From contig CP136061.1 of assembly GCA_032622095.1 (NCBI GenBank), forward strand, positions 55,439,762 to 55,503,761: a stretch of DNA of 64,000 nucleotides, in the 5' to 3' direction. This document shows, piece by piece, positions 11,001-23,000 of this stretch. A program made the position numbers and the translations under genes. Origin of the DNA: Siphonodentalium dalli (Eukaryota; Mollusca; Scaphopoda; Gadilida; Siphonodentaliidae). The first letter of the stretch is position 1. Each line of letters opens with the position of its first letter. The notes beneath the pieces were generated by a model. The model did not search any database, had not been told where the DNA came from, and saw only the letters and a program-made list of their open reading frames with translations.

Positions 11001-14000
11001 ATTGACAACCCACATGATAATTTTAATAGAGAAATGTGAGAGGTTGTTAACCATCATATGAAAACTATACTGAATACATCAAAAGTTGTAGAAATTACTT
11101 ATACACACAAAAGCAAGCTATATGTATACAGGAAGTGGGAAATATTAATAGCTTATTAGATGAATAATTATACTAGCCACTGATTGATGAAAAACTATTC
11201 TCAAATGTTCAACATAAAAGTACAATGCAGTCTAGGTCACTATTTTTAAATGGACTACAACGACAAACTATAACATGTTATACTGTACATAAAACTGAGT
11301 CAAAACTAAAATACAAAGATCTTTCGGCAATTTGACTTGACAAGTTTAGTTTCGTCCATAAAGATATTTGTTATGTTTTCGGTTCACATTTTTCTCGGAA
11401 TTTGCAGGTTAAATATTTTGTAGAAATCTTAATGTCCATATAAAAAGATTTTGAAATTCCAAATGACAAACAGAAGGAAAATTTTGTTGATGATAGGTAA
11501 ATAAATGGTATCATAATAACTAGTGGAATTGCGTCCCTGTTATTGTAATGTGTTATCCTGCTTTGAGTGCGAGATATTGTGATTTTGTGACCTGCATTGT
11601 GACGTTTAAAGGGGTACTATACGCCAATTTCAATAAATTCCCAGTAACAATTGCGATCTAATATCAATATTATATTTTAAAATAACGTATTTGAGTCGAC
11701 GATGTCTACTGAAAAAGTTCCGGGTTAACAGGCTATCATAAAAGTCAAATTGAATTATTTAATATAAATGAATTTATGGCTGGAGTCATAAAATGGCGAA
11801 TTATACCATTACGAGTTACCGTTCTTGAAATTTCACATGTTGGGTGTCTTTTATCGACGGCCGTTTACGACGAACATTATTGAGTTGCGAACAAAACATG
11901 TTACATGCAAAAGGAAGTCCCGCTATAACCAATTTGGAAAAAAAGAGAAGAAACAAGATTCATAAAGTGTCAAGTATTTTATAGGGGGTGAGATTGTTCA
12001 ATGGAAGAGATTGCAGGCATCAATTGAACTTCCGGTTCATCCTGCAACCTGCGTCTTCTCCGGTGAAGGTCAAAAACATGGCATGTAGTTTGAAACGTAA
12101 TATTTTTATTTCCAAGATCAATATTTTCGTCGCTAAATTAGGTTTATACGAAACTCATATAACACGAACACAATCTAACTTGAAAGTTATGTCAATGGGA
12201 GTAAATAAAAAAATTGCCTATCTCTGTGTACAGTACCCCTTTAATGAAATTTTATAAAGTTTATTCTGTTCACTCTCAGGTGCTACTTAACATTGACTGG
12301 AGCTTTGCATCTCAAGTTTGGAGGTGCCCCAGCAGGTCCCGCTGGTACAGGAAAGACAGAAACAACCAAGGTACATAACTCTATTATAACTATATCTTAA
12401 CATATTATCAGAAATCAACTTGTTATCAATCATGACATATGGTCTTGCATCAGATTTATTATTAGTTCTAAACAAGTCAGGTGTGTTAAGTTTGATAGAC
12501 AATCTAAATTGACCCTCTGGTATAAATTGTTATGTGGTCATGACTGTTTTCAATTTTCTTTAAAGATGGATTATCTCTTTATATAACAATTTTGAAATAG
12601 TTTCGTGGGTATAAAATAATAAATATGAATTGAAGACTCGTCCGGAAACGCTTCTGTCAATTAATATTGATTTTATTTTGAAATATTTTATTATAAAATG
12701 AGATCATTAAGTGGGACATTTTATTGTTCTATTATTAGAACAGACCATTCAGGCGATACCATATAAATATAGAGATCATTAGGGTGTTCCCATAGCTATG
12801 CTCCGAATGTCAAATGTCCCAGATTGATAGTTGTATTGTTTTATTACATAGTTATAAGCGATGAGTAATTGAAGTTTATTTGTGACAAAATTACACAAAT
12901 AATATTTATGGTCTTTGTTAACAGCAACCACTATTGTTCGTTAGCTAAACAATCGCATGTTTTTAGACCATATTCAAAATATAATCAATATTAATCGAAA
13001 GAAGCATTTCCGAACATGGGTCTGCAATTCATATCTAATATTTTATACCTCGATAACTATATAACACATGTTTACAATGAGATAGACCATCTTTAATGAT
13101 GAATTTTACATGAGAACTCTATTTTTTTGCAGGATTTGGCAAAGGCTATGGCCATACAGTGTGTGGTATTTAACTGCTCAGATCAGCTCGATTTCATGGC
13201 TATGGGCAAATTCTTGAAAGGTCTGGCGAGGTATGCAAACTAAATTTCTATAAATAATTGTTAAATTTAGTTTCAAATGCAAGGCATATTTACCTGAAAT
13301 TGTTATTGTTTTATTGTTGCAGATTATTTTTAACTGATTTATTTCTGCAAAGGATTAATTTACTTACATGTAGAGTATGGCCTCATGTTAACCCTTTCAT
13401 GACGGGAGCTGCGCTGGTGCAGCATTAGCCCTTTCAGTGCCAAGTCCGATTTTTGTATCAACCCATATTTCCTTGATCATTTTTCAAATTTATTGATTAT
13501 AATAATGTGATACATTGATGGAAAGAGCTCTAAGAGAATTAAAGATCATGTGCCAGTGCATTCTCTTATATATGCGAGTCTCCCATATGGAGCCTAACAT
13601 ATTTAGGAGAATGCACTGGCTTACAAGGTCAAGGTAAATATTGTTGGGCCAATGCATTGTATTATATATGCGAAGCTCCAAATGGGAGACTCGCATATAT
13701 AAGAGAATGCATTGGCACAGGGTTTTCGCAAAATTTCAGGAAGCTCCAGTCATGGAAGGGTTAATTCACTTACTTGTAGAAAATGGTCTCATGTTAAAGG
13801 TCCCCTGTTCCGGACAACTTACTCAACAAACAGGGTTTATTATGAAATTCAGTTTGATGGCATGTTTGTTGTAGTATTCAAGAATGTGGATGTCCAATGA
13901 ATACTGTTTACATTCTTTGTGCATGGATGTACAGTAATGCTCTAAGTAATTGACTCCTTAACCACAGCAGAGTTATGGGTAACTTTTCAGGATTTAGTCA

Positions 14001-17000
14001 GAAATATGGCTTGTTGCCATTCATCGGAAAGCTCTCAGGGAGAGCTTTCTGATGAATGGCAACAAGCCATATTTCCGACTAAACCCTGAAAAGTTACCCA
14101 TAATTCTGCTGTGGTTAAGGTGTCGATTACTTAGAGCATTACTGTAGGCTTGTTGGAATAAGTTCCTTTCTTGTCTAATGAAAATTTTTGATATTTTCAG
14201 TGACAGCTTATTTCGTTTAGTTCGACCTTGTTTCAATTGTTCTTTGCATGACTAGTGAAAAACATTGACATTTTCAGCACTGGGTTCATAGGCTTTGTTT
14301 CAATAAGTCGTGCTTATGTCTAATGAAAACTGTTGACATTTTCAGCTCTGGAGCCTGGGCTTGTTTCGATGAGTTTAATCGTATTGACATTGAAGTATTA
14401 TCTGTTGTCGCTCAACAAATTACAACCATTCAGAAAGCTCAACAACAGAGGGTAAACAATTATGTCCATATATGGGCATCTCATGCTCATTGTCTCCTGC
14501 TTATATAGAGCATAGATCCCATCCGTCCATATATGGGCATCTAAATATTACTAAATGTCTTCTGCTTATAGTGCATCTCCATTCATAAATTGGTGTCTGC
14601 ACAGTCTGCATGATAGTTAATGTATTCTACTTATAGTACATCTCCTCCATCCATATATGGGCATCTTCATAATGCTTAGTTTTTCTGCCTATAGTTCATC
14701 TTCGCTTCATGTGCCTTCATTAACACAGATTCATATGAGTATTAAGGAGTGTTCAGAGGAATCATGTTGCATACTTATCATACTATGTATGGAAAATTTG
14801 AATATGTGCAATTTAGCTCAGGCAGTCAGATGGATGCATTTCGTCTTATACGATATGTCCATTAACCCATTTAACATTCTCAACACAAGAGATTCAATTT
14901 TCCAAATCCAACGACGGCAACACATATCTTAAATGGAATGGAAGCACGTTTGGGATTTCTTGTTTTTAAGAGATCCCTTTACATTTGGAACTCAGATGTG
15001 ATGTGCACCCATTGGGTACCTCGATTATGCATTGTGTTGTCTACCAATTTGGGGATATAGAGAAACTAAACTAAACAAGAAAAAGAAACTTTCTAAAAAA
15101 CTAAAAAAACTAGTTAATTTTATAATAATGATACTTTCCAGAGATAATGAGGCCTAAGCACAATGAGGTCTCTAGAGGGTGAATTTAGTGATGCTAGCCC
15201 ATTGTGACAAATAATTGCGCATTCCGACCATCTGAACACTTCTTTACTATATTTTCTATATTGTTACAGACATACACATAGTCATAGTATTTCAGCTCAT
15301 ATATTTACATACACCATTGTCTTCACATTTCAACATTTTTTCATCAAACTGAGGGATTCTAACATAAAATTATCCAAATTATTATAAGCAATTTATTTTC
15401 ATAAATACGTGCTAATGATGCTGGTTCCCGTAAATGTTGATGTTTATTTTCTTCCATATTATTTTCTATAAGCATACCTATAATAAAAATATAATCTTCT
15501 TTCTAGCAGGATCAAGCTTTGTGAAACCGCAATACACTGAGGACATTGGAAACCATGCACTTATATTCAAACTCTCTCGATAGAGTTATTTACTTATTTA
15601 TTTAATTCCTACTTTTTGTGCCTTAAATTATGCTGTGTTCTCAGGCCATTTTGCCAAAAGTACTTATTAAATTTTAAAATACTGCAAGCTACATTTGTAC
15701 AATTATCGCAGAATGACAGATTTGTAAGAACGGTTAACATTGTCACAATCAATTGTGTGGTGATGTTCAACTTGAAATTTAATTAAATCCTCAATGTTCC
15801 ATTTTCATCGAAAAATATTGTGAATAAACATTCACTAGTTCAAGTACTTGTCATTTTATTTGAAAAGTGTATGCCATTATTCTCAAGAATAATAATTGTT
15901 TGAGGCATAATTTTAAAGACATGGGGTGGTGTCTGAGAATACAGATTTTTTAATGGCCTCATGTAGGTAGTTTACATGCATAGCCACCATATTTCAAGAT
16001 TGTCTGCCCAACATACATAAGGCCATGCAAAGTCAATTTCTCAGGCGGCCATTATTTTCCAAACATAAGTTCATAAAAATTTAGTTCATAGTTTCCATGT
16101 GATTTATTTCGTCAAAAATCACCCAATACAGTGTCATTGACACATTTTTTATTGAGTTTTTGTACTCAAAACGTCGTGTTGTTTAACACATGGTTACAAA
16201 ATACAGTAATGAATCGGAAATTTGAATTGGGAAAACAGGTCTCAGTTCTGTTCAGTATGTATAAAAACGTACTGCAGTTATTTCAGACTGATTATAATGT
16301 TTTCTGACAAATCAAAAGCGAATGACGAAGTTATCTAACAATTACTCCTAAAGAGAATATTGAAGAAAACAAAATTCATAGGGAAACTATCTAGTTGCAT
16401 ATATACAATCACTCATCACACAGTTGACATTGAAATATGTCAATTCCAATTAAGCATTGTCAAAATAGCTCGAAATATTCAGACTCAAAGCGTTTCAATT
16501 TTCTTGAAGGATTTCTATTTTCCAAAATTTTATTTATGTGTTTGGAACTATCATTGAAAACAACTGAATGGATTATCCAAAGACAATACAAATAATTTTA
16601 GTTAGTTGGGCAATGCAAAGTCTATTTCCTGCTTCTGAGGCCCACACGCATGGTTATGAAACCTGCGCGTGCAACCTTGTTATTGCATTTGATGTCGGGG
16701 GGGGGGGGGGGGGGGGGGGGGGGGAAATTGTATACGGTACAAGATAATTGCAAAAAGTTTTTATACAAACATGGGTGGAAGTGAGATCGTACAAACCTGT
16801 TTCCCAGTTCTGATTTCCAATTCATAATAATTTATTGTTATTTGTAACTATGTTGTCAAGAATGTTTGATGAATGAGAATGCAATCTCAGTCAAAAATGT
16901 GACACCGGTAATATTGGTTGGGAAATTTTGAAAAAAATAAATCACACAGAATGATTCTATCTAAACATTTTACAGACATCTGTTACAGAAATATTGGCCA

Positions 17001-20000
17001 TGGGCAACTGAAATTAGACCCTGAGCTAGCTGATACAGAGATGGAATGTCTGATCATCAGCATGTCTTCCAGAAATAACAAATAAAATATAACAGCACTC
17101 ATGCACATTGGTTTCAAAATGTTTGGCCTGAGAAACTGGAAATTAACTGCATGGCCTTACTTTTGTACCAGCTCATGTGCAATCAATTCCCCATTCACCA
17201 TATAGACTCAGATACTGCCTGTCATTTCCACAAGCAAATTGCATGATAATATATACAAAATTTTCACATATTAATACATGAGATTTTTCAAAAATACGGT
17301 GACTCAAAATTATATATCATCACAATTGCACAAGTGAAAAAAGGAATTATTATAGTTATAGCGTCGGACAATCTTGGAATATGTATGTCTTGTCTTGCTT
17401 ATGCCAGGCCTCAGCTCAGAAGGAAACTTGCATGCCCCCATGTGTACCTTTAGTACAAGAGAAGACAGGCAGTGAGCACCCCCCCTGTCTCTTTTTTTGC
17501 CCCCTATATCAACATAGGTCCAAAACAGCATCAAAACAACTGATATCTCAAGCTGTTGTGGACTGATAACCGACAAGACTTGGTCCAAACACTGCACAGT
17601 CAATCACATAAATTGTTTGATGTTAGGGATTTTTAAACTAGGATCTACAACTTCAGGTTTTCTTTATAAATATTCACTTTTCCCTGATGATGCTGGAGAG
17701 TAGTGACTTCCTGTAAGCTGAGACCTGGCCTCTCTGTCATGACCTGGCTTCTCTATCATGTGGTAATACATGCATGCACCGTTTCCCTCTTTTTAGTCCT
17801 TCTCCCTTACTATGCTAATATATGCTTGAACTTTTATCCCGTTCTTTAGTTCTGGTGCTTGGGCTTGCTTTGATGAATTTAATCGTATAAACGTAGAAGT
17901 GTTGTCTGTAGTCGCCATGCAGATTATAACCATACAGAGAGCTGCTGAGGCTAAGGTATTCAAAATGTCCTTCTGTCTGTCTGTCTGTTTATGTGTATTT
18001 ATATGTACATGTCTTAAGTGTTGTTTACGTTAAACAGAAAATAAACATACTGCTCTTATGTGTTACCTGGCCATCGGTTTATGGCATGAGTGTGATGAAG
18101 TAAGGTTAGTATATGAGGCCAGATCATTTTGTGATCACAATTTAATGCAATTAAATGTTGGCTGTAACCAGTGTCAGCTCTGAGCTGAAATTTTTTTTGC
18201 GGATGAAAATACTTTTTGTCAAATTCTTTTAGAAGTTGCCAAACGATATCGATTTCTGCAATATTGAGTCATATGTTTCAACAATCACTGTTTGACGACT
18301 GTTGTTATCTTCGTTGACTTGCTGGATTTTTCTTTCAATCTTGTGTTGATGCAATCAGTGATAGCAATCTGCAAGCAGTCAAGTATTAATCCTTTCATGA
18401 CAGGAGCTGCGCTGGTGTAGCATTAAAGATCCTGTACCATGTATTATCTTATATATGCGAGTCTCGCATAGGGAGCCTTGTATATATAAGAGAATGCACT
18501 GGCTTACAAGGTCATGGCAAAAATTGTTTGGCCAATGTATTATATTATATATGCGAGGCTCCCTATGAGAGACTCGCATTTATAAAAGAATGCATTGGCA
18601 CAGGGTTTTCACAAAATTTCAGGAAGCTCCAGTCATGGAACGGTTAATAATTCTTGCCTGTCATTTAAATCGTAGAACAATAAAACCAATCACCGAACAA
18701 TAAAATTTGGGGATATAGAGAAACTAGACTAAAAAAGATAAAGAAACTCTCTAAAGAACTAAAAAACTTGTTAATTTGATAATAAAGATACTTTCCAGAG
18801 AAGATGAGCTCTAAGCAGCAGAATGAGCTCCCCAGAAGGTGAATTTAGTAATGCTAGCCCACTATCACTAAATTCCCCCTCTGGGGACCTCATTCTGCAA
18901 ATGTCCAGCACTATATTTTCAGGCCTATTCCTCGTAGCTTGAAATTCAATACAATTGACGCCACTGATTAGGATTTGTACAGAAAGCCCCCAATTAATCG
19001 ACTCCTTAACTCATCGGAAAGCTCTCCCTGTAGTAGAGAGTTCAGACAATGTAATGTCAAATCTCTCATCACCGGCAAATAATAAAAAAAATGTCTGTCT
19101 GTATATGTGTTTGTCTGTCATAATGTTACAGTGAGAGGCTAGATTTACTACTAACACATTACCATTAGGATTATCTGCAGGTCCTTCTCTATGTCTGTCT
19201 GTTATAGAAACCTGTTAAAAGCTAAGTATATATATGTTGTATAAATATCTAGCTGTCTGTTTCCCAACTATCTGTCATATTGCTCACATCAGCTCAAGAC
19301 TAGTCCAAGATTCCTTTGATGTAAACCAGCTATTGAAATAATGCTGATTTTCCATCGAAGTCCCATGTATATGTCTTTCAATAGCAGACTTTATGCCCAG
19401 ATCCGGTGGCGGGATGTTTTGTCACTTTTAATTGAGTTTGCCCCATGATGCTATATACACCTGAAAGAATGACATTTTACGGTCATAATGATGTATTATA
19501 ATCTTAACTTCATGTTAATTTGGGCATAGAATGTGCCGCGTAATTACAAGAACCTCAGTTTGTTTACATTTGATTGACACGGTCACTTCACAAGGTCAAA
19601 TGAGTTCGTATATATGTGAACGTTGTTATAAAATATATTTTTCACATTACATGTAATACTGCCAGTTGACAACTCTTGTGGAATTCAGAACAAATATAAT
19701 ATTTTCTATGGAATAGAATGGTTTTACTGTTACTGGGGATTTTAGGTGAGTGGTCAACAATGTTAAACCCAGGTATAGAAAGACTATTACATGGGACTTC
19801 GACGTAAAACCAGCATTATCTCAACAGATTTTACAAGGTGGTTTACATCGAAGGAAACTTGGACTAATTAAGTATTTACACACCACTAACAAACTGTCCA
19901 GAGAATCATATTGTCTCTTTCTCTGGTTTCTAAGGGAGCATTGCTTAAAATGGGAAAGATTAGATAACTCCAACTGTTAAATGGTTCATAAACCATGGAA

Positions 20001-23000
20001 GTAGCAGCACAGGAGTCAGAAGAGAAAAAAAAAATAACGCTCTTTTTAACAAATGGGACGTATTTTGTTATTGGTCTGTCTGTCCGTCTGTCAATCCATT
20101 CGCTGTTGGTTTACATATGATAACTTTAGTTAGTCTGTACTGAATGGAATGAAATTTGTTATGTGAGTTTAGTGGACCAAAATACAGGTCAAGATAAATG
20201 TTCCGTCCAACAAATTTCAACAGATTTATGGCCCTTTGTTTGATTTAACACGGCTTATTTTGTCATGCCTTAGCAATGCTCTGGTTTAAAATTTTTAGTT
20301 CCAACATTGTATAATACAAATTTAGACTTTAAAACACATCTAACTGGACATATTCTTTTACGTGAGCTGTTCAAAGCTTGTGTATTATACACATGTGTAT
20401 CCAGGAGATATACACAGGGAAATCTTGTTCATTATTTTGTAACGTTCGACAAGACATTGCCGGTGTATCTTCGTGTTGTGTGATTCGGCAATTGGTGGTT
20501 CGTATCAGTTGATAACACAATCATTGTCTTATAGGCATACATGACATGACCTTGTTATTAGAATGCAGGGGCGTTTCCATTGACTGTATGGTCTATGTAA
20601 CTATTATACCAGAAATACAAAATTTGATAGCGAAATAAAATGGGTGCAGTGCGTGTTCAGCTTAGGTTGAGTCGGAGGTAAGAAACCAGTGTCTATCTTC
20701 GCCAATGACCAACCTTCATGAAATGTGACCCCACAAGTACATCGGCGTTAATCTCAATGTCAACTCCCTATGTAAGAAAATGATTACCCTATCAACCAAA
20801 CATGCCATAGCAGACAGTATGGTCAGTCATGGGTTCACTCGCAATGGCTCAATGCACAAGCAATACTTCGCATGTGCATCTCTTGCGGCTATACATGTGA
20901 GTATAACACACAAGCTTGTACATTTCTCCATTAATCTCTTTCTAATGATCATTTCTCAATGTCACAAATGGTCCCATCATTATTTCTGATTATTTGTATC
21001 CTTTGTAGGTGGACAGGTTTATCTTTGAGGGAGTTGAGCTGGTATTGAAGCCATCATGTGCCGTGTTCATCACTATGAACCCTGGGTATGCTGGCCGTAC
21101 AGAACTTCCTGATAATTTGAAGGTAAATAATTCTGCTGGTGGCTCAGTCAGTAAAATGCATTAGGCCGTGATCAGCCGTCCAGCGATGGTGAAGCTGGTT
21201 CAATTCTCCATATGTGTGAATTTGCAATCCACGCTGAGTGAAGGTAACCTGATTCATATATCTGGGCAACTTTGTCAGTTATTAGTGGGTATTAGTGGTT
21301 TCTATGGGCAAAGAAGTGATTTCCCATTGAAATTAACTTTTCGCATGGTCCATTCCCCTATAAAAAAATTTGCAGTGTCATGTTGACGAGTGGCTGAAAC
21401 CAAGATAAATCACATTCAAAGCAAGTACCCGAATATCACATGATCAAAAGCTCATAATCTTTATATAATTGCTGTCTTATATCTTCATGAGAAAAAAAAC
21501 TGATTTTGAAATGAAAGTTCGGAAGATTTCCTATGTATGACTTGCTACGCCCCCTGAATGAGAAAAACTAAAAGTCTTGTTTTAAATTCACAGACCGCAA
21601 TGATGTCAACAATCTCAGCATACAATGCCCAAGTGGTTTCCTGTGGTTCACTGAGTTCTGCAGGCTCATTGTCCCATTTGAGACTTCACCTCAAATCAGA
21701 TACAATACACTGGACAACCACATGGTCATGGTCACATATGTGCATGTTATTGATCAGTGATCTAACTATGTTCTAACTGACATTGTCCATGCCCTCTTTA
21801 TTTCAGGCGTTGTTCCGACCAGTTGCCATGATGGTGCCAGACTATGCTCTCATTGCAGAAATCATGTTGTTCTCTTTTGGATTTTCTGAAGCCAGAGTTC
21901 TGTCAAAGAAAATCGTCACAACATTCAAGCTTTCCTCCGAACAGCTGAGTTCTCAGGTACAGTTTAATTGAAGGGACACATAATGTTTGCAACATAAAAG
22001 TTTAGGATAGCAGAAATGCAATTTAAATCGTTCACAATAATGAAGACAATTTTTGTCAAAATAAAATATAACTGACTGTTTTCATAACATTTAATCTTTA
22101 GATTCCAAGTGAACATGCATACAGCTATTTCAGAAAAAATTTAAAGAAGTATCAAATAATTTTGTGTATGGTGTCACTGGATGATCGCATATCCAGAATA
22201 TTTAATTATTATTACAGTACTTAACATAAAAGTGTGCAGTATTTTTCCAAATATATTCACCAACGGATTATATATTGGATACCCACCCTCCAAAGGGTTA
22301 AGACTTACCTGTTTAATTAATTTTTAAAATAAGTCTCTAACACTTACGACATGTTGTTTCTTGAATGGTTGCAAATATCTTTATCTGAATTCGATTGTTA
22401 AATGTTCTTACTAGTATGTGTTTCAGGACCATTATGATTTTGGTTTGAGAGCTGACATTCTGATTGGTTAATTCAATGTTCTTTTGTGTTTGAGGACCAT
22501 TTTGAATTTGGTATTAGAGCAGAATTCCGATTGGTTAATTCAATGTTCTTGTGTTTCAAGACCATTATGATTTTAGTATGAGAGCAGAATTCCGATTGGT
22601 TAATAAAATGTTCTTGTGTTTCAGGACCATTATGATTTTAGTATGAGAGCAGAATTCCGATTGGTTAATTCAATGTTCTTGTGTTTCAGGAATATTATGA
22701 TTTTGGTATGAGAGCTGAATTCCGATTGGTTAATTCAATGTTCTTGTGTTTCAGGACCATTATGATTTTGGTATGAGAGCTGTGAAGAGTGTAATCTCTG
22801 CTGCGGGAAATCTGAAGAGGCAATACCCAGATCTCGACGAGGTACATGTGAAAACCCAAACATTGTTCAAGTCCAATTCATTGGAAGTACTAAATAGCAT
22901 TCTAAAACTGTAATCGAGTTAACGGTAATATATATAGAGTTATCCCTCCTTCTCCTCAATAGAATGGTGTGCACGCGCAATCTGGGTGGGAACTACTTCT

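What the first reader, a model, noticed from the sequence alone, without database searches (positions are those of the whole stretch)
14346..17955. Mutually exclusive Walker B exons in the AAA1 motor site
Seen: two 106-bp exons with identical phases and good splice sites encode alternative versions of the AAA1 Walker B segment. They share 27 of 36 residues, and the changes fall mostly after the catalytic DE. Including both creates a frameshift and an early stop; skipping both also shifts the frame. Known: AAA1 is the main ATPase site of dynein. Inferred: the gene can make two motors with different AAA1 kinetics, perhaps for different cilia types or for sperm. I know of no described case in DNAH1.
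Basis: partly seen in the sequence, partly recalled or inferred. Interest (0 to 1): 0.9.

Follow-up and report, generated by a model that had tools for sequence, protein, structure and literature searches.

The report
Alternative exons for DNAH1's ATPase site
An animal gene for a cilium motor (inner-arm dynein DNAH1) carries two interchangeable copies of the exon that encodes its main ATP-burning site, and both copies look preserved by selection, so the gene can probably make two versions of the motor, although no RNA evidence was available to prove it.

Summary
Exon a (14346-14451) and exon b (17850-17955) are both 106 bp with the same phases and GT-AG ends. Either one joins 13230 to 21009 in frame. 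Including both, or neither, shifts the frame to early stops. The gene is DNAH1. Exon a matches mammalian DNAH1 at 35 of 36 residues. Exon b shares 76/106 bases and 27/36 residues with a. All nine replacements lie after the Walker B DE, and all ten residues invariant among this genome's other AAA1 Walker B exons are kept. dS is 1.1-2.7 and dN 0.18-0.20. A neutral copy would keep 27/36 residues without a stop in under 0.3% of simulations, even at very low divergence. Exon b is therefore an old, constrained coding exon, best explained as a tandem-duplicated, mutually exclusive exon. Joint use is policed by frame (and probably nonsense-mediated decay), not by short introns or U12 sites. No other dynein found in this 2.2-Gb genome shows a similar pair. 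The kind is known: muscle myosin MXEs, and one in the Schistosoma cytoplasmic dynein SmDHC1. I found no report at an axonemal dynein AAA1 site. Exclusive splicing, tissue specificity and changed kinetics are inferred; no RNA data or related animal genomes were available.

The parts
12287..12370 (+). DNAH1 AAA1 Walker A segment ([28 protein letters not shown]), constitutive
   Evidence: continuous ungapped match to mammalian DNAH1; coordinates
13133..13230 (+). Exon upstream of the pair ([32 protein letters not shown]), ends in phase 2
14346..14451 (+). Exon a: canonical AAA1 Walker B exon ([35 protein letters not shown])
   Evidence: 35/36 identical to mammalian DNAH1; frame
17850..17955 (+). 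Exon b: alternative AAA1 Walker B exon ([35 protein letters not shown]), same length and phases
   Evidence: frame; dN/dS; neutral simulation; column test
21009..21122 (+). Exon downstream of the pair ([38 protein letters not shown]; sensor I), reads in frame after a or b

Best explanation
The DNAH1 gene underwent an old tandem duplication of its AAA1 Walker B exon. Both copies are kept and, most likely, exactly one is spliced into each mRNA, giving two full-length inner-arm dynein heavy chains. They are identical except for nine residues in the segment just after Walker B, the stretch leading into the hairpin and sensor I of the next exon. Shown: matching boundaries and phases, frame exclusivity, retention of every invariant Walker B residue, and protein-level constraint on exon b. 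Inferred: joint inclusion is discarded by frameshift and nonsense-mediated decay; a cell-type splicing factor picks the exon, helped by the modest donors; and isoform b has a tuned AAA1 cycle, not a dead one.
For: Both exons are 106 bp with identical phases. Single use is in frame; double use or skipping gives early stops. dS 1.1-2.7 against dN 0.18-0.20 between a and b. Simulated neutral copies with no stop and at least 27/36 residues: 0.22% at d = 0.3, 0.01% at 0.4, none of 20,000 at 0.55 or more. The replacements sit in columns that vary among this genome's other dyneins (mean entropy 2.17 versus 0.65 bits, no permutation of 20,000 as extreme). All 10 invariant columns are kept, and 7 of 9 new residues occur in a paralogue at the same column. 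Exon a is essentially mammalian DNAH1, so the changes accumulated in b. The intervening introns (1.1, 3.4 and 3.1 kb) and GT-AG sites leave frame as the only visible enforcement. Among 17 dynein Walker B exons found in the genome, only this gene shows an adjacent pair.
Against: No transcript data. No orthologous exon b could be sought in other animals. Exon b's donor is the weakest of those scored. Altered kinetics is untested: the changed positions are variable ones, so b might be functionally equivalent. On 24 codons a tree does not place a and b as sisters, as expected for saturated silent sites; origin by duplication of a rests on the identical boundaries and phase.
Confidence: 0.82

Rival explanations
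1. Exon b is a relic: an old duplicate no longer spliced productively, with all DNAH1 protein made from exon a.
For: No RNA evidence. Exon b has the weakest donor of the four scored, and exon a alone matches mammalian DNAH1.
Against: Under neutrality 27/36 identity without a stop is very improbable at the observed silent divergence. Changes avoid every invariant column. Both splice sites and the exact length are intact. Only a very recent loss of use would escape this.
Confidence: 0.08
2. Both exons are used in separate mRNAs, but the isoforms are functionally equivalent; the choice matters for expression control, with double inclusion lowering DNAH1 output through decay, not for motor kinetics.
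For: Replacements lie in columns variable among paralogues and 7 of 9 are residues found there. Double inclusion yields a premature stop.
Against: A pure off-switch would not need exon b's peptide to stay constrained. Long-kept tandem exon pairs are usually tissue-specific (PMC9741552).
Confidence: 0.25
3. Exon b came from another dynein gene inserted into the intron, not from duplication of exon a.
For: Over 72 nt exon b is about as similar to paralogue L015 (79%) as to exon a (76%).
Against: Exon b has exactly exon a's boundaries, length and phases, whereas the paralogous segments looked at, L015 and L009 among them, are cut differently. Silent sites are saturated, so similarity cannot decide.
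Confidence: 0.07

Closest known systems
[quoted passage not shown]
   Same: A dynein heavy chain with one pair of equal-length, homologous exons in mid-gene, with split codons at the exon ends
   Different: Cytoplasmic, not axonemal, dynein; the text read here does not say which protein segment the exon encodes
[quoted passage not shown]
   Same: Tandem-duplicated exons swapping short pieces of a motor ATPase domain, reported to adjust ATPase and velocity
   Different: Myosin, with many clusters per gene and biochemical support; here one cluster in a dynein and no biochemistry
Human tandem duplicated exon substitution events (PMC9741552) and the human MXE landscape (PMC5740500)
   Same: Homologous adjacent exons, mostly old, conservative replacements; frame incompatibility is a recognised way of excluding joint inclusion
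   Different: Supported there by RNA and peptide data; 'dynein' appears in the text of PMC5740500 only in a reference title

Membership tests
Mutually exclusive tandem-duplicated exons (MXE) | Adjacent, homologous exons of similar length and identical phases with splice sites | tested here: met
   106/106 bp, 27/36 aa, same phases, AG...GT on both
Mutually exclusive tandem-duplicated exons (MXE) | A single copy keeps the frame; joint inclusion or skipping does not give the protein | tested here: met
Mutually exclusive tandem-duplicated exons (MXE) | Splice-junction reads bridging each exon to both neighbours, and no productive a-b joins | not testable with these tools
   no RNA data held
Mutually exclusive tandem-duplicated exons (MXE) | Both copies under coding constraint | tested here: met
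Mutually exclusive tandem-duplicated exons (MXE) | Conserved pair in related species | not testable with these tools
   collections hold no animal genomes; the genome-contig hits are MAG contigs, seemingly protist dyneins, and viral contigs gave none
Axonemal dynein heavy chain DNAH1 | Best match DNAH1 among solved dynein heavy chains over AAA1 | tested here: met
   249 aa of AAA1 and following: 481 bits to DNAH1, next best 414
Catalytically competent AAA1 site in isoform b | Walker B FDEFNR and residues invariant among paralogues retained | tested here: met
   all 10 invariant columns kept in b; activity itself not tested

The most novel reading that the evidence does not exclude
An axonemal dynein tunes its main ATPase site by alternative splicing: DNAH1 isoforms a and b differ in AAA1 cycle rate and are deployed in different cilia or in sperm, a dynein counterpart of myosin's motor-domain exon swapping.
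Probability: 0.35. Interest if true: 0.75.

Novelty: new member of a known kind. Interest (0 to 1): 0.55.

Why it matters
If both isoforms are made, nature has supplied a matched pair of dyneins that differ by nine residues beside the AAA1 Walker B motif. That would be a direct way to ask how the primary ATPase of an axonemal dynein is tuned, and whether cilia and sperm of one animal use different motors from one gene. It would extend a regulatory principle well documented in myosins to the catalytic site of an axonemal dynein.

Tried and rejected
A third copy of the exon, or other duplicated exons in this gene: tblastn of about 30 DNAH1 exon segments against the window gave only the a/b pair, plus the tandem array noted in passing. 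RNA hairpins as selector structures: the large inverted repeat 13930-14146 and the palindromic repeats at 13542-13726 and 18439-18609 are dispersed repeats; the first look gave thousands of genome candidates for two of them, so they are not evidence of regulation. Short-intron steric exclusion and U12/U2 incompatibility: introns are over 1 kb and all sites GT-AG. Phylogeny of the 24-codon segment is uninformative. Exon b relatives in prokaryote genome contigs: only divergent dyneins in MAG contigs, apparently protist contamination; viral contigs: none. Identifying the animal by mollusc haemocyanin was inconclusive, with no control positive. Structure prediction was not run, because a model would not show kinetics and the tool returns no coordinates.

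Full report
Observation. Reading the window at the stated coordinates and joining the pieces reproduces the finding. The upstream exon ending at 13230, exon a (14346-14451) or exon b (17850-17955), and the exon at 21009-21122 read through in one frame with either a or b. With both, the frame runs into two adjacent stops seven codons into exon b. With neither, it stops after thirteen codons of the next exon. The exons are identical in length and phase (enter 2, leave 0). They share 76 of 106 bases and 27 of 36 residues. All nine replacements (D>N, I>V, Q>M, T>I, K>R, Q>A, Q>E, Q>A, R>K) lie after the catalytic DE.

Gene identity. The predicted AAA1 and following segment (249 aa from Walker A on, with exon a) matches mammalian DNAH1 without a gap at 481 bits, against 414 for the next dynein. 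Further dynein exons run on the + strand across the window. Exon a encodes the mammalian DNAH1 sequence with one change in 36. With exon b the match to DNAH1 falls (181 versus 198 bits) while matches to other inner-arm dyneins stay about the same. Exon a is therefore the ancestral form and exon b the divergent copy.

Is exon b real? Three tests say it is constrained as protein. Silent divergence between a and b is high (dS 1.1 to 2.7 by three methods) while dN is 0.18-0.20. A neutrally drifting copy of exon a almost never keeps 27 residues without a stop: 0.22% at 0.3 substitutions per site, none of 20,000 at 0.55 or more. The replacements concentrate in columns that vary among the paralogous dyneins of the same genome (mean entropy 2.17 versus 0.65 bits, no permutation as extreme), and all ten invariant columns are untouched. 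Residues such as RIN and AMQ have counterparts at the same columns in other dyneins. Isoform b therefore looks like a competent AAA1 site, not a dead one.

Uniqueness. In the 2.23-Gb genome, exon b's peptide finds 17 dynein Walker B exons on several chromosomes. Only DNAH1 has two side by side. No further copy lies in this gene within the window.

Mechanism. The introns (1.1, 3.4 and 3.1 kb) are too long for steric exclusion and all sites are GT-AG. The visible safeguard is the reading frame: joint inclusion puts stops upstream of later junctions, a classic decay substrate (inference from established knowledge; the same class is described for human MXEs, PMC5740500). Both donors lack G at +5 and score lower than their neighbours', which fits regulated exons but is weak evidence from a matrix quoted from memory and few sites. 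Which factor chooses, and where, is unknown. The residues that differ lie in the stretch between Walker B and the hairpin before sensor I, placed from general knowledge of the AAA+ fold; a mild change of the AAA1 cycle is the most natural effect but is untested.

Known context. Mutually exclusive tandem exons are a well-described class. Muscle myosin genes use them within the motor domain (PMC3912159), and one is reported in the cytoplasmic dynein heavy chain of Schistosoma (PMC3228551). Searches of the held library found no report for DNAH1 or any axonemal dynein; the main survey of dynein evolution (10.1093/molbev/msw213) is not held. I file this as a new member of a known kind, at an unusually central site.

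Limits. Exclusive splicing is inferred from sequence.

Noticed in passing
window 22417-22780: A 65-bp tandem array (5.6 copies, 90% match) repeats the 3' splice site and first codons (GACCATTATGATTTTGGTATGAGAGC) of the DNAH1 exon that begins about 22755, leaving several decoy acceptors just upstream of the real one.
   Followed up: partly
window 13930-14146: A near-perfect 107-bp inverted repeat with a 3-nt loop about 200 bp upstream of exon a. It belongs to a MITE-like family with thousands of candidate sites in the genome, at 93-97% identity among those scored over full length.
   Followed up: partly
window 13542-13761 and 18390-18644: Two copies of a dispersed palindromic repeat family flank the exon pair, one in each outer intron, and could in principle pair across both exons. 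The family has thousands of genome candidates.
   Followed up: partly
L017 (C5:102432826) and L018 (C5:102298842), with L011 (C5:102610348) nearby: Two near-identical dynein Walker B exons 134 kb apart on one strand, with a related dynein nearby, suggest tandem dynein genes. Their Walker B reads ASLDEFNRIDVAVLSSIAEQ, replacing the usual CF before DE.
   Followed up: no
L030-L048: Several bacterial MAGs in the genome collection carry dynein heavy chain contigs, probably protist contamination (rumen and pond samples).
   Followed up: no
window 16697-16725: A poly-G run of about 29 bases inside the intron between exons a and b.
   Followed up: no
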